DNA from: Cutibacterium modestum
GTDB lineage: Bacteria > Actinomycetota > Actinomycetes > Propionibacteriales > Propionibacteriaceae
Direction of reading: 5' to 3'
Length of the DNA: 64,000 nucleotides
NCBI RefSeq assembly: GCF_008326345.1
Contig: NZ_BJEN01000003.1
Location: forward strand, 372,001-436,000
Below, piece after piece: positions 10,951-15,639 of this stretch. The stretch's first letter is position 1. Each line of letters opens with the position of its first letter. A model generated the notes under the pieces. The model was not told the DNA's origin. It ran no database searches and worked only from the letters and a program-made list of their open reading frames with translations. A program made the translations under genes and the position numbers.

Positions 10951-11345
10951 CTAGACTTGCCAGGTGCCGTTGCCGGTCAGTAGGGTGGCTAGAACGACGT
11001 CGCGGGAGTCTTGGTCGGTGGTGTCCCCGGCGGCGAGCTGGACTTGGGTGCGGGCTTGGTCGTCGTAGGTGGGGCATTCGATGTTGCGTAAGATTCCGAT
11101 TGGGGTCTGGGTGACGAGGTTGCCGTCGTTGAAGATTGGGCAGTTCTGGTACATCTCGACAAATGAGGTGCCGCGGTGTTTGGCGGCTGCTGTGAGTATC
11201 TGGGCGAGGTGTGTGCGGTCGGAGTCTATGGCGCGAGCCACGAAGGAGCATCCGGCACCCAGGGCCACGGCCAGGTCGGTGCGCGGCCATGGAGGAGTGC
11301 ATATCGCAAGGTATTCATGCAGCACGGGAAGCCGATCAGCGTGGA
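10951..11345 (-). pseudogene. Degenerate extra copy of korB (2-oxoglutarate:ferredoxin oxidoreductase beta)
   Basis: Three blocks match the intact korB downstream, in the same order and orientation: about 11281-11336 with 15368-15420, about 11133-11270 with 14968-15105, and about 11025-11132 with 14626-14735. They are joined by two internal deletions that remove the middle of the gene. The shared peptides include 'AVALGAGCSFVARA', 'AAAKHRGTSFVEMYQNCPIF' and 'TPIGILRNIECPTYDDQAR'. The last ~20 codons have diverged. The TPP-binding core is missing, so it cannot be functional. It flanks one side of the ABC operon at 11.4-14.4 kb, with intact korB on the other side. Confidence 0.85.
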
Positions 11346-11412: not shown

Positions 11413-12012
11413 CTACACCGTCTGACGAGGCTTGATAAGCGAGACGAGGATTCCGAGAAGGCAAAGAACCCCGGACAATATCGCCGATACCACGTCCGTC
11501 CGATCCTTGATCGGCCATGACCACCAGGATGTGTAACTTTCCGTTCTCCCCAACAGAAGGCTTGTCAGAACCCAGATGATCGCAGGGATGGATGACAATT
11601 TCTTGATGCCAATGGCGTTTGTGAGAAGGGTGAAACCGGACAACCCAACGATGTTGCGGGTGGAGACCATTCCGAGCGGAAGATCTGCCGACCATGACAA
11701 TATCCCGAAAAGCACCGCAGGTGTCATCGATAGGAGACAATCTGCGTATGTGATCCGTCGCACGGACCCTGATTCTGCTCTCATGTCGCGACGCGAGAGG
11801 CACCAACCTTGTACGACGACCACGCAGAGGGGTATTACGGCGGCATTGGGAACTTCAACACCTCTCCCTGACAACAGTGGAGGAAGCGAAATCATAATCT
11901 CAGATGTGAACGCAATAAGGATGCAACACACCACGGTGGTTACGAGAAGAGATGCCAATGATCGATTGCGCGCCCAGGCTCTCCAACCAAGCGCTATGTG
12001 TCCTCTCAACAT
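11413..12012 (-). CDS. ABC-type membrane subunit / integral membrane protein
   Basis: 199 residues with about six hydrophobic segments ('SLASLLVTTVVCCILIAF', 'VIPLCVVVVQGWCL', 'SMTPAVLFGILSW', 'VGLSGFTLLTNAIGI', 'IPAIIWVLTSLLLG', 'AILSGVLCLLGILVSLI'). The start is ATG 12012, which overlaps the TGA closing the distal frame of the preceding permease (ATGTTGA); the longer open frame upstream is just read-through of that neighbour. Position and topology make it the second permease of the ABC operon. It has no enzymatic motif. If ribosomes reach it by coupling, its translation would depend on the poly-C state of the upstream gene. Confidence 0.65.
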   Translation of the reverse strand: MLRGHIALGWRAWARNRSLASLLVTTVVCCILIAFTSEIMISLPPLLSGRGVEVPNAAVIPLCVVVVQGWCLSRRDMRAESGSVRRITYADCLLSMTPAVLFGILSWSADLPLGMVSTRNIVGLSGFTLLTNAIGIKKLSSIPAIIWVLTSLLLGRTESYTSWWSWPIKDRTDVVSAILSGVLCLLGILVSLIKPRQTV

Positions 12013-13221
12013 TTCTGCAGTCGAGATCGATAACTCTCGACAATCCTGGCTTGATCCTGGATGGGCAGTCGATCCATGGACTTCAGCCATTCGCGCGTCT
12101 CAGGGGAAAACTCCTGACCCGTCATCGCGATTCCCGAATGTTTCGTCAGCCAGGCGACGACGCGATCCTGAGTGTCGAGAACCCAGACTGCCACCTGATC
12201 TTTGTGGTCCTGACACGGGGCGACGGCCAACCCCGAAGCAACGGCCAGAACCGCCTTCGACGGCGACTCAGATGTGGATATCGCAGATGCCGACCACCAC
12301 ACGGTTTCTCGGGTTGAGTCCTGCGTACCTTGCCTATATTCTTCGGGGACGTGAATACCGGAATTTCGCCACGCTGTGTCTGCTTTCCGGATCACGGGGC
12401 CCAACAGCTCGAGATCGTGAGATTCCCACGCGCACACCACGGGATCACTACCTCTCAGACAGATCTGTGGTCTGGTTCGGGGGGGGGGTGGCGGGCAGCG
12501 GACCTATGCCTTTGACTGTGTGAAAGCCGATGAACGTCGTCGCAACCAATCCAATAATCAGGGTCAGGGTCACGGTGATACGTGCGTGATGATTCCGTCT
12601 TCCTGCTACGAGGGCCAGGGCTGACACGATGAGGATCCCACCTGCCATCGTCATTCCAGCTGTGAGGACTCGAGGATTCAACATCTCACCTACGGTGCAG
12701 CAGCCCATGTAGTAGCCAAAAAGATATCGCAGCTCCATGACCGATACGGCTGGTCCATATAAGACGAGGATGAAGGGCAGGAGAAGGGCCGTTGGTGCTG
12801 ACAGTGCCAGCGGCCACGATGCCCCAATGGCAGCACCGAAGACGCCCCATGCGAGCATCCAAACGGCACCGATGGCCGACATTTCCATGATCTGGTTTCC
12901 AGATCCTGACGCCAGAACAGAAATGCCTACGGCCACGGTCGATGGGAGAACGGCGATGGCCCACCATGGAAGGATGATTCGCAGTCGAGACCTCCCGGTC
13001 GGTGTGGTGAGGATGTGACCTTCGGTGAACCTCCGAAGTTCCAGGCAAGCACCCAGAGCCACGGGTCCAGCGATCATCATGAAGGCGTAGAGCACGCTCG
13101 CAGATCGCTCGATGTCTGACGGTGAAGGAGGATTTCCCAACGCCCCGTAACACCATATGAGAATCATGACAGGTAAAAGACGGATGCCATAAGATCGTCG
13201 GAGAAGGAGTCGCCACGTCAT
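12006..13221 (-). pseudogene. ABC permease split at a poly-C tract (probably phase-variable, off state)
   Basis: ATG 13221 overlaps the ATPase stop by 4 nt. The first frame encodes about six TM helices and stops at 12448 soon after a run of ten C on the coding strand (12488-12479). With nine C the frame continues without a stop through 'PQICLRGSDPVVCAWES' into the 144-residue downstream frame (12440-12006), which has the look of an extracytoplasmic domain (paired Cys in 'VVCAWE' and 'AVAPCQD'). The result would be a ~404-residue permease that ends exactly where the next gene starts. I therefore read the two frames as one gene, disrupted by tract length. Confidence 0.75.
12479..12488 (-). repeat. 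Homopolymer tract: 10 C on the coding strand
   Basis: Ten consecutive G on the plus strand, the longest homopolymer I noticed in the window. It lies inside the permease gene at the end of the TM region. A length of 9 or 12 joins both halves; 10 or 11 does not. Confidence 0.95.
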
Positions 13222-13955
13222 TGTGACACCTCTGATTCTCCCACGACATCAAGGAATGCCTCCTCGGCTGCGTGGAGAGAGTTTTCGCCACGCCTCAGAA
13301 AATCATGAGTGGCGCCATCGTAGACAATGTGTCCCTTATCGAGAACGATGACTCTGGTGTACATCGAGTCGATCTCGGATGTGTCGTGAGTCGACACGAC
13401 AAGATTTCGAGTGCTACTAAGGTGCGTCAGCAAATCCCTGAAGACGTGCCTTTGCGCCGGGTCGAGACCGGCAGTTGGTTCATCGAGCAAGATGATTGGC
13501 TGCTCGCCCACCAGGGCTTGGGCCAAACCAACTCGGCGCAGTTGTCCACCGGAGAGCCGATCGGGCTTGTCCGTCAGGTGATCGTCCAACTGAACGGCCT
13601 TCAATGCCGTGACCGCTCGGTCCTCGCTCTCGGGGGAACTGCACCCAGTGAGCCATGCCGAATATGCCACCTGTTCAACCACCTTGAACCCAGGTATTGG
13701 CCTGATTTGCTGTGGCATCAAGGACACGGCAGACCGAGGGGCAATCCCCGCGTCCACGGTGATTGACCCTGCCAAGGGCTTGAGCTGGCCCGCACACAGC
13801 CGCAGCAAGGTGGTCTTTCCTGCACCATTGAGTCCCAAGAGGACGGTTGGACCTTCGGTATCCCCCAGGGTCAGGTTCAACCCATCAAAAAGTGGGGGTT
13901 CTCGTCGAGAATATGAAAAACGAATTCCCCTGAGGGTCAAGGTCTGGGCTACCAT
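13218..13955 (-). CDS. ABC transporter ATP-binding protein
   Basis: 245 residues with Walker A 'GLNGAGKTTLL' near residue 40, Q-loop 'LMPQQIRP', signature 'LSGGQLRRVGLAQAL', Walker B 'IILLDEPTAGLD' and switch 'VVSTHDTSE'. This is the arrangement of ABC-2/bacteriocin-immunity type ATPases. ATG 13955 overlaps the stop of the secreted-peptide gene (ATGGTAG) and its own stop overlaps the permease start (ATGA), so all genes of the operon are coupled. With the two following membrane proteins it should form an exporter or a self-protection pump for the peptide encoded upstream (inference). Confidence 0.9.
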   Translation of the reverse strand: MVAQTLTLRGIRFSYSRREPPLFDGLNLTLGDTEGPTVLLGLNGAGKTTLLRLCAGQLKPLAGSITVDAGIAPRSAVSLMPQQIRPIPGFKVVEQVAYSAWLTGCSSPESEDRAVTALKAVQLDDHLTDKPDRLSGGQLRRVGLAQALVGEQPIILLDEPTAGLDPAQRHVFRDLLTHLSSTRNLVVSTHDTSEIDSMYTRVIVLDKGHIVYDGATHDFLRRGENSLHAAEEAFLDVVGESEVSQ

Positions 13956-14388
13956 CGGATTCTGAAGTCACGTACGGAAAGCTTCAACCAAGTTGGAGAT
14001 CCTCCAGTCAGACCGACCAATCGGAACCTGTAGGTCCCGGCAGGCATGCGTCCGTAATAGGCGGATCCTGTCCTTGCGCATGACAGTGTTCTGTCACCGG
14101 AATTCACGTCAGGCTGGAAACGTCTCACTTTGCGAAGATTGTAAGTTGCGCTCCTAGGGATGACGCCTGCGCTGTCCGGTGCGGGTGAACATTTGGCGTA
14201 GTGTGAAAGGCTTGTCCTGCCATCGTGGTGGTTGGGATCGTCCCATGTTGACGATTCCTTGCCCACCATCCAATTAGAGATTATGTATTCTTGATCCCAT
14301 CCGCTTGTTCCGCCCATCCTGCGAGAGGTGAGAAGGTGACAAGAGCGGTAAGTGCCAGCGTCATGCCTGCAAGCGTTCGATTCCTCAC
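13949..14388 (-). pseudogene. Small secreted peptide gene, frameshifted after the signal peptide
   Basis: GTG 14388 follows AAGGAGAG and opens a clear signal peptide ('TLAGMTLALTALVTF', cleavage near 'AGWA'), which stops at 14281. The mature part, about 105 residues with 'NWMVGKESSTW', 'HYAKCSP', 'TLSCARTGSAYY' and 'MPAGTYRFRLVGLTGG', is in the neighbouring frame up to 13949. One missing base near 14290-14320 explains the break. The two Cys and the Gly/aromatic beta-like C-terminus are typical of small exported actinobacterial proteins of unknown role. Coupling to an ABC ATPase suggests a bacteriocin-like or signalling product; that is a guess from layout. Confidence 0.65.
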
Positions 14389-14544: not shown

Positions 14545-15639
14545 TCAGGCGTTTCGTTCCCGCACCTGCCACGTATCCGTACCGAGGAGCAGGCTTTGGA
14601 GCCCCTTGTCGCGATCCTGCAGCGTGGTGGTGTCCCCGGCGGCGAGCTGGACTTGGGTGCGGGCTTGGTCGTCGTAGGTGGGGCATTCGATGTTGCGTAA
14701 GATTCCGATTGGGGTCTGGGTGATGAGGTTGCCGTCGTCGAGGTGGGCTAGTTCGAAGGCCAGGGATGGGTCGGTGCGGTGGGAATCGTGGACGAGGATG
14801 TGGTCCATACCCACCTCGGCGACGTCTGCGACCGTCAACTCGCCATTGACGGGGTCGCGGACTACGCCACGGGTACCGTCAGCCCCGACGAGGACCGGCT
14901 CGCCGTCAACGAGTCGGATGAGGTGCTGGGCGGCTTCGGGCCCCTTGTAATCGTCGAAAGCCCCGTCATTGAAGATTGGGCAATTCTGGTACATCTCGAC
15001 AAATGAGGTGCCGCGGTGTTTGGCGGCTGCTGTGAGTATCTGGGCGAGGTGTGTTCGGTCGGAATCGACGGCACGAGCCACGAAAGAGCACCCAGCCCCC
15101 AACGCCACCGCCAACGGGTTAAACGGGGCGTCAATCGACCCCATTGGAGACGACTTCGTGACCTTGCCAGCCTCCGAGGTGGGGGAGTACTGGCCTTTTG
15201 TCAGTCCGTAGATCCGGTTGTTAAACATGAGGATCGTCAGGTTGACGTTGCGTCGCATGGCGTGGATGAGGTGGTTGCCGCCTATGGACAAGGCGTCGCC
15301 GTCGCCGGTGATGACGAACACGGCCAGGTCAGGGCGCGAGACTGCGACTCCTGTCGCGATGGCCGGTGCGCGGCCATGGATGGAGTGCATGCCGTAGGTG
15401 CTCATGTAGTACGGGAAGCGTGAGGAGCAGCCGATACCCGAGATAACGACGGCGTTTTCTTTAGCGATGCCCAGGTCGGGCAGCACTCCCTGGAAAGTAG
15501 ACAAAATCGCGTAATCTCCGCAGCCCGGGCACCAACGCACCTCCTGGTCGGAGGCAAAGTCCCGACGCTTGAGCGGCTCGACGGCTAGTGGAACGCCAGC
15601 CAGACCGACGGGATGATTCTCGGGGGTGATGTCGGTCAT
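14545..15639 (-). CDS. korB: 2-oxoglutarate:ferredoxin oxidoreductase, beta subunit
   Basis: Thiamine-diphosphate half of the KOR complex, which oxidatively decarboxylates 2-oxoglutarate to succinyl-CoA and passes electrons to ferredoxin. It has 'RWCPGCGDYAIL' near residue 35, the TPP/Mg2+ motif 'GDGDALSIGGNH' and 'ILMFNNRIYGLTKGQYSPTS'. Length of 364 residues is normal for the actinobacterial type. ATG 15639 lies 1 nt after the korA stop, with AAGGAGG inside the korA end. A decayed copy of this gene lies at 10951-11345. Confidence 0.95.
   Translation of the reverse strand: MTDITPENHPVGLAGVPLAVEPLKRRDFASDQEVRWCPGCGDYAILSTFQGVLPDLGIAKENAVVISGIGCSSRFPYYMSTYGMHSIHGRAPAIATGVAVSRPDLAVFVITGDGDALSIGGNHLIHAMRRNVNLTILMFNNRIYGLTKGQYSPTSEAGKVTKSSPMGSIDAPFNPLAVALGAGCSFVARAVDSDRTHLAQILTAAAKHRGTSFVEMYQNCPIFNDGAFDDYKGPEAAQHLIRLVDGEPVLVGADGTRGVVRDPVNGELTVADVAEVGMDHILVHDSHRTDPSLAFELAHLDDGNLITQTPIGILRNIECPTYDDQARTQVQLAAGDTTTLQDRDKGLQSLLLGTDTWQVRERNA

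What the first reader, a model, noticed from the sequence alone, without database searches (positions are those of the whole stretch)
12006..13221. Poly-C tract that decides whether an ABC permease is full length
Ten C on the coding strand (12479-12488) terminate the permease after its TM region. With nine C the frame reads through, stop-free, into a 144-residue Cys-containing domain. That domain ends exactly at the start of the next permease gene (ATGTTGA overlap). Tract-length switching would toggle the permease C-terminus and, by translational coupling, possibly the next gene. I computed both frames by hand from the sequence. C-tract variation in cell-surface genes is reported for C. acnes.
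Basis: partly seen in the sequence, partly recalled or inferred. Interest (0 to 1): 0.8.

Follow-up and report, generated by a model that had tools for sequence, protein, structure and literature searches.

The report
C10 run splits transporter permease gene
A run of ten C really does cut a skin bacterium's transporter gene in two, and related species carry the gene whole, but the evidence points more to a gene cassette falling apart than to an on-off switch.

Summary
G10 on the + strand (12479-12488) is C10 on the coding strand. The permease frame 13221-12448 (257 aa) stops just after its membrane segments. An open second frame runs to 12006 and overlaps the next permease start by 7 nt. The distal frame is real protein: it matches Pfam DUF7224 (E 1.4e-7). 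In 4 of 4 congeneric orthologues found, the two parts are one 401-403 aa protein with no C run at the junction.
The window is probably Cutibacterium modestum, not C. acnes. The window is 4 nt longer at the junction than those relatives. The cassette (secreted Cys protein, ATPase, permease-DUF7224, small permease) is eroding: the window's secreted-protein gene is also frame-broken, away from any homopolymer, and 1 of 5 species (C. avidum) has all four genes intact. The genome's other two G10 runs also interrupt genes (leuC, an oxidoreductase). Best reading: a recent slippage frameshift in a decaying bacteriocin-type cassette, revertible in principle, not shown to switch. A true phase switch and an assembly miscount stay open; no second strain or reads could be examined.

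The parts
12479..12488 (-). C10 tract on the coding strand (G10 on +); splits the permease reading frame; 4 nt longer here than 4 orthologues, none of which has a C run
12448..13221 (-). Permease 1 as it stands: 257 aa, six hydrophobic segments by a simple scan (seven in the G004 orthologue), stop (TAG) shortly after the last one
   Evidence: 68-71% identical to 4 orthologues over 251-252 residues
12006..12503 (-). Second open frame across and beyond the tract; coding part 12006-12440 is DUF7224 (PF23866), the C-terminal domain of the permease, three Cys
   Evidence: (E 1.4e-7, 32.1 bits, cut-off 27)
11413..12012 (-). Permease 2, 199 aa, ATG overlaps the stop of the distal frame by 7 nt
13218..13955 (-). 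ABC ATPase, 245 aa; stop overlaps the permease 1 start (ATGA)
   Evidence: PF00005 E 2.3e-24
13949..14388 (-). Gene of a small secreted Cys protein, frame-broken near 14281-14284: signal-peptide-like part in one frame, mature part (13952-14281, 84% identical to C. avidum) in another; no homopolymer at the break
10951..11332 (-). Decayed partial copy of korB (2-oxoacid:ferredoxin oxidoreductase beta subunit) on the far side of the cassette; the whole korB is at 14545-15639

Best explanation
The permease gene of a four-gene bacteriocin-type cassette (secreted Cys protein, ABC ATPase, permease with C-terminal DUF7224 domain, small permease) carries a recent frameshift made by slippage growth of a C run to ten. 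The ribosome stops after the membrane part, so the Cys-bearing DUF7224 domain is not made, and permease 2 probably loses its translational coupling. It is one lesion in a cassette that is eroding across the genus, in a genome that keeps a second, whole cassette of the same type. Being a C10 run it should mutate often and can revert, so the line between lesion and switch is one of rate and selection. Shown: the split, the joined orthologues, the absence of the tract in them, the second lesion, the paralogous copy. Inferred: slippage as the cause, recency, loss of function, bacteriocin/self-protection role, outside location of DUF7224, polarity on permease 2.
For: Joined 401-403 aa orthologues without any C run in 4 of 4 congeners that have one. 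DUF7224 lies in a long open frame in 23 of 24 places found. Secreted gene frame-broken in the window too, away from homopolymers. Of 5 species with the orthologous cassette, 1 (C. avidum) has all four genes whole: G003 keeps 22 residues of the secreted protein and has an in-frame stop in the ATPase; in G007 no secreted gene was found; in G004 only its first 39 residues align, with an in-frame stop. The secreted protein is found in 3 of 9 genus genomes, the permease (either copy) in 7 of 9 (the window genome and 6 of 8 congeners). The own paralogous cassette on contig C2 has four open genes. The other two G10 runs also interrupt genes: an oxidoreductase, which also lacks its first 109 residues, and leuC. 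C. acnes tract HPT_21 likewise marks deteriorated leuC remains (PMC4746626, section 17).
Against: The distal frame shows no sign of long disuse: no other stop or frameshift; dN/dS against G004 is 0.28 versus 0.19 for the membrane part; window-only residue changes are 2 of 115 sites, versus 14 on the G004 side and 31 on both. leuC likewise has a single break, exactly at its tract, and is otherwise 91-92% identical to C. avidum leuC. So these breaks are very recent, or the products are still sometimes made, or the assembly is wrong. No second strain was available.
Confidence: 0.56

Rival explanations
1. Phase variation: the C run is a contingency locus. Slippage toggles the DUF7224 domain of the permease, and by coupling the second permease, on and off in subpopulations; the window caught the off state.
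For: Run length is outside the genome's normal spectrum; the distal frame is intact and conserved; overlap with permease 2 conserved in 4 of 4 orthologues; the genus has variable G/C tracts (54 polymorphic tracts in C. acnes, PMC4746626), and cell-to-cell differences of DsA antigens within one strain are reported as tentative phase variation (PMC6560440, passages).
Against: No tract at this place in 4 of 4 orthologues; tract lies about 60% into the gene, not at a promoter or 5' end; a second, non-slippage lesion upstream; most C. acnes tract lengths follow clades, read as slow accumulation (PMC4746626).
Confidence: 0.17
2. Assembly or sequencing miscount of the homopolymer: the real gene is uninterrupted.
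For: All three coding G/C runs of 10 in this genome have the same length and each breaks a frame that is open in at least one relative; leuC has no other lesion; distal permease frame conserved; the sequencing platform of the assembly is unknown to me.
Against: Runs of 12 and 13 stand in the same assembly; the secreted-gene break nearby is not in a homopolymer and the oxidoreductase gene also lacks its first 109 residues, so real decay exists; tract variation in C. acnes was Sanger-checked in six genomes (PMC4746626).
Confidence: 0.17
3. Recoding: ribosomal +1 slippage on the C run, or transcriptional slippage, makes some joined protein from the C10 gene.
For: The C run is a plausible slippery sequence and the frames overlap across it; the distal frame is conserved.
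Against: No run in orthologues, so recoding is not conserved; no unusually stable structure in the 91 nt tested downstream (z-score +1.14).
Confidence: 0.05
4. The gene is split but both halves are made: the distal part restarts at GTG 12440 behind an AGAGG-like sequence and keeps permease 2 coupled.
For: AGAGG-like sequence just before the stop, ten bases ahead of GTG 12440 (read by eye).
Against: The distal part alone would have no membrane or signal segment; stand-alone DUF7224 was not seen among 23 intact places.
Confidence: 0.05

Closest known systems
C. acnes homopolymeric tracts HPT_06 (oxidoreductase PPA0378) and HPT_21 (leuC remains), Scholz et al. 2016, PMC4746626
   Same: G/C runs inside coding sequence whose length breaks the frame; this genome has G10 runs in genes of the same two kinds (leuC and a Gfo/Idh/MocA oxidoreductase; that the positions are the same was not tested)
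   Different: The permease tract is not named in the parts of the text I read (supplementary tables could not be opened); no strain comparison here
DsA1 (PPA2127) C tract of C. acnes (PMC6560440, passages)
   Same: C run in the gene of a cell-envelope protein, frame-dependent product
   Different: DsA1 tract is at the 5' end of an adhesin gene; here it is about 60% into a permease
PF23866 (DUF7224) permeases of Propionibacteriales
   Same: The distal frame is this domain; same gene order ATPase, permease-DUF7224, small permease in the paralogue and in sets of other genera (by eye)
   Different: Here the domain is cut off by the frameshift
Lactococcin 972-type and other Sec-secreted bacteriocins with an ABC self-protection set (recalled)
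   Same: Small secreted protein next to an ABC ATPase and permeases; in several genomes the transporter is present without the secreted gene
   Different: No Pfam, NCBIfam or PDB sequence match of the secreted protein to a bacteriocin

Membership tests
Phase-variable (contingency) locus | Repeat tract in a coding or promoter position whose length sets expression | tested here: met
   C10 sets the reading frame; effect on expression itself not tested
Phase-variable (contingency) locus | Tract length varies between strains or within a culture | not testable with these tools
   One genome per species held; viral contigs gave one unrelated chance match and none
Phase-variable (contingency) locus | Tract kept by selection in related lineages | tested here: not met
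   0 of 4 orthologues have a run at the junction
Pseudogene by frameshift | Intact homologues exist without the interruption | tested here: met
   4 of 4 orthologues joined, 401-403 aa
Pseudogene by frameshift | Relaxed constraint after the break | tested here: not met
   Distal dN/dS 0.28 against G004; 2 window-only changes in 115 sites; expected if the break is recent
DUF7224 permease (PF23866) | Score over the Pfam cut-off | tested here: met
   32.1 bits, cut-off 27
DUF7224 permease (PF23866) | Domain joined to an N-terminal membrane part | tested here: not met
   Split in the window; in a long open frame in 23 of 24 places elsewhere, the membrane part itself compared for 8 proteins
Lactococcin 972-type bacteriocin cassette | Secreted protein matches the bacteriocin family | tested here: not met
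   No Pfam family at E up to 1, no relevant NCBIfam or PDB relative
Lactococcin 972-type bacteriocin cassette | Antibacterial activity and self-protection | not testable with these tools
   needs experiment

The most novel reading that the evidence does not exclude
The C run is a true switch that removes and restores the outer DUF7224 domain of a bacteriocin-type self-protection transporter and, by coupling, its partner permease, so that a skin commensal varies its response to a neighbour's secreted protein cell by cell.
Probability: 0.15. Interest if true: 0.55.

Novelty: new member of a known kind. Interest (0 to 1): 0.3.

Why it matters
If it switches, it would extend Cutibacterium tract variation from surface antigens to a transporter domain inside an operon. 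As a lesion it is a clean example of how G/C slippage runs break genes in this genus: all three coding runs of ten in this genome interrupt a gene that is open in at least one relative. It also points to an eroding cassette (secreted Cys protein plus DUF7224 transporter) shared by Cutibacterium and some other Propionibacteriales, for which I found no description (DUF7224 in 0 papers of the library).

Tried and rejected
Strain comparison: the search for related loci with the 257-aa part found no relative in genome contigs; with A2 it found three named congeners. A tract-edge pattern in viral contigs gave one hit (L045), unrelated to the window by blastn; a tract-free neighbouring pattern gave none. 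The joined permease of C. avidum has no match in plasmids or phages and no PHROG. Lactococcin 972 idea for the secreted protein: no bacteriocin family or PDB match (the three weak PDB hits at E 0.07-1.1 I take as chance). Structure comparison was not possible (predictions switched off). Searches for print on the site: 8 papers, 8 listed; 12 of 21 listed; 8 of 127 listed; I saw listings, and parts of PMC4746626, PMC6560440, PMC8620323 and PMC8286925. PADLOC hits of the ATPase I take as the shared ATPase fold.

Results against my reading: conservation of the distal frame; leuC with a single break at its tract and none elsewhere; dinucleotide shuffles give a 10-run in 20 of 100 windows. The DUF7224 genome search missed the window's own distal frame and the G003 and G007 orthologues, so its counts are lower bounds. 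dN/dS rows that could not be used were dropped: the four ATPase pairs with G003 (not-a-number; the in-frame stop upset the alignment), and rows with saturated dS. On checking I corrected my first idea that the oxidoreductase continues in the next long frame: that frame is a different gene; and after I lowered the lesion reading from 0.60 to 0.56 and raised the miscount reading from 0.13 to 0.17.

Full report
What is there. Ten G on the + strand at 12479-12488 lie in a permease gene read on the - strand. The first frame, 13221-12448, gives 257 aa ending after the last hydrophobic segment. A second frame is stop-free from 12503 down to 12006 and so overlaps the first across the tract. Its stop overlaps the ATG of the next permease at 12012 by 7 nt.

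Is it more than chance? By dinucleotide shuffles of the window a 10-run occurs in 20 of 100 (mean 0.39). But the genome's own spectrum of G/C runs is 32 of length 7, 3 of 8, none of 9, then 10, 10, 10, 12, 13 (counted by hand), so the long runs stand apart from the tail; extrapolation gives about 0.3. The run matters because of where it sits.

The distal frame is protein. 12006-12440 matches Pfam PF23866 (DUF7224) at E 1.4e-7, over its cut-off. They have no C run at the junction; the window is 4 nt longer there. In 245 genomes of the order DUF7224 was found at 24 places in 19 genomes; 23 lie in open frames of 412-831 aa and one is degenerate. That search missed the window's own copy and two orthologues, so it under-counts.

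The cassette. Order: small protein with a signal-peptide-like start (by eye) and two conserved Cys, ABC ATPase (PF00005), permease-DUF7224, small permease; the ATPase-permease and permease-permease starts and stops overlap. A paralogous cassette with four open genes is on contig C2 of the same genome. Similar sets, some with a secreted-looking neighbour, occur in other genera (by eye: L084, L088). The secreted protein matches no relevant family. It is found in 3 of 9 genus genomes, while the permease of either copy is found in 7 of 9 (the window genome and 6 of 8 congeners). Keeping the transporter where the secreted partner is gone is what one expects of self-protection genes (inference).

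Erosion. In the window the secreted gene is itself split between two frames near 14281-14284, where no homopolymer lies. In G004 only its first 39 residues align, with an in-frame stop; in G003 22 residues are left and the ATPase has an in-frame stop; in G007 it was not found; C. avidum, 1 of the 5, has all four genes open. In the window the cassette sits between korB and a decayed partial korB copy. In the four congeners that have the orthologous cassette, korB lies elsewhere: on another contig in G004 and G007, over 800 kb away in G003 and G006.

Timing. Against G004, dN/dS is 0.16 (ATPase), 0.19 (permease membrane part), 0.28 (distal part), 0.15 (permease 2). At sites where the other species agree, window-only changes are 2 of 115 in the distal part and 11 of 201 in the membrane part (G004-only 14 and 27; both 31 and 31). 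So the distal part was under constraint until very recently. This fits a recent lesion, a switch, or an assembly miscount, and does not separate them.

The other long runs. Of the five runs of 10 or more in this genome, three are in coding sequence and all three interrupt a frame. One is this permease. One is leuC (NCBIfam leuC model E 3.7e-88): open in 4 of 9 genus genomes (frames of 482-800 aa; G003 has stops, G002, G005 and G007 gave only weak matches to another protein). Its two frames change over exactly at the run and it has no other break against C. avidum. One is a Gfo/Idh/MocA-type oxidoreductase, found in 1 of 8 congeners (C. namnetense, open frame 414 aa); against that protein the window genome's copy changes frame at the run and lacks residues 1-109, so it is decayed anyway. 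The aligned junctions show the window genome 4 nt longer at each of the three: permease against 4 orthologues, leuC against 3 of the 4 open copies (G001, G006, G004; the G008 junction was not displayed) and the oxidoreductase against its single relative. The 12-run overlaps only small frames (106 and 157 aa) and the 13-run lies about 55 bases before the first listed start of a thioester-domain/TQXA surface-type protein. Scholz et al. 2016 (PMC4746626; abstract, sections 9 and 17 and passages read) report 54 polymorphic tracts in 90 C. acnes genomes. These include HPT_06 in an oxidoreductase gene and HPT_21 at deteriorated leuC remains; they read the variation as slow accumulation over time. 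That is the known kind to which this tract belongs.

Host. G000 has 2,626,218 bases in 9 contigs. PMC8286925 (passages read) says that the C. modestum M12 assembly is in nine contigs, and its own isolate gave 2.6 Mb. I infer C. modestum, probably M12, by this match only.

Verdict. The sequence observation and the joined protein are confirmed. Switching is neither shown nor excluded. A recent slippage lesion in an eroding cassette explains more of what was seen, including the second lesion; the single clean break in leuC keeps the miscount and switch readings alive.

Noticed in passing
window 10951-11332 and 14545-15639: A decayed patchwork copy of korB (pieces 83-95% identical) flanks the cassette on the side opposite the whole korB, suggesting that the cassette arrived with or caused a partial duplication.
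   Followed up: partly
L038 5324-5333 (G000:C1:37323-37332): A G10 run breaks leuC (3-isopropylmalate dehydratase large subunit) with no other lesion; leuC is open in 4 of 9 genus genomes.
   Followed up: partly
L039 5325-5334 (G000:C2:525324-525333): A G10 run interrupts a Gfo/Idh/MocA-type oxidoreductase that also lacks its first 109 residues against C. namnetense; perhaps the counterpart of C. acnes HPT_06.
   Followed up: partly
L041 5415-5427: A G13 run lies just upstream of a thioester-domain/TQXA surface-type protein gene, a position like those reported for C. acnes surface antigens.
   Followed up: partly
window 13949-14388: The secreted Cys protein belongs to a small family without a relevant Pfam, NCBIfam or PDB match; relatives lie beside DUF7224 transporters (L018 in the same genome, L084 in another genus).
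   Followed up: partly
L036 6662-7390 (G003): The ATPase of the orthologous cassette in the probable C. acnes genome has an in-frame stop after residue 81.
   Followed up: partly
L008, L009, L010: Permease genes of C. avidum, G003 and C. namnetense are close (dS 0.03-0.26), which may mean transfer of the cassette between species; not tested against core genes.
   Followed up: no
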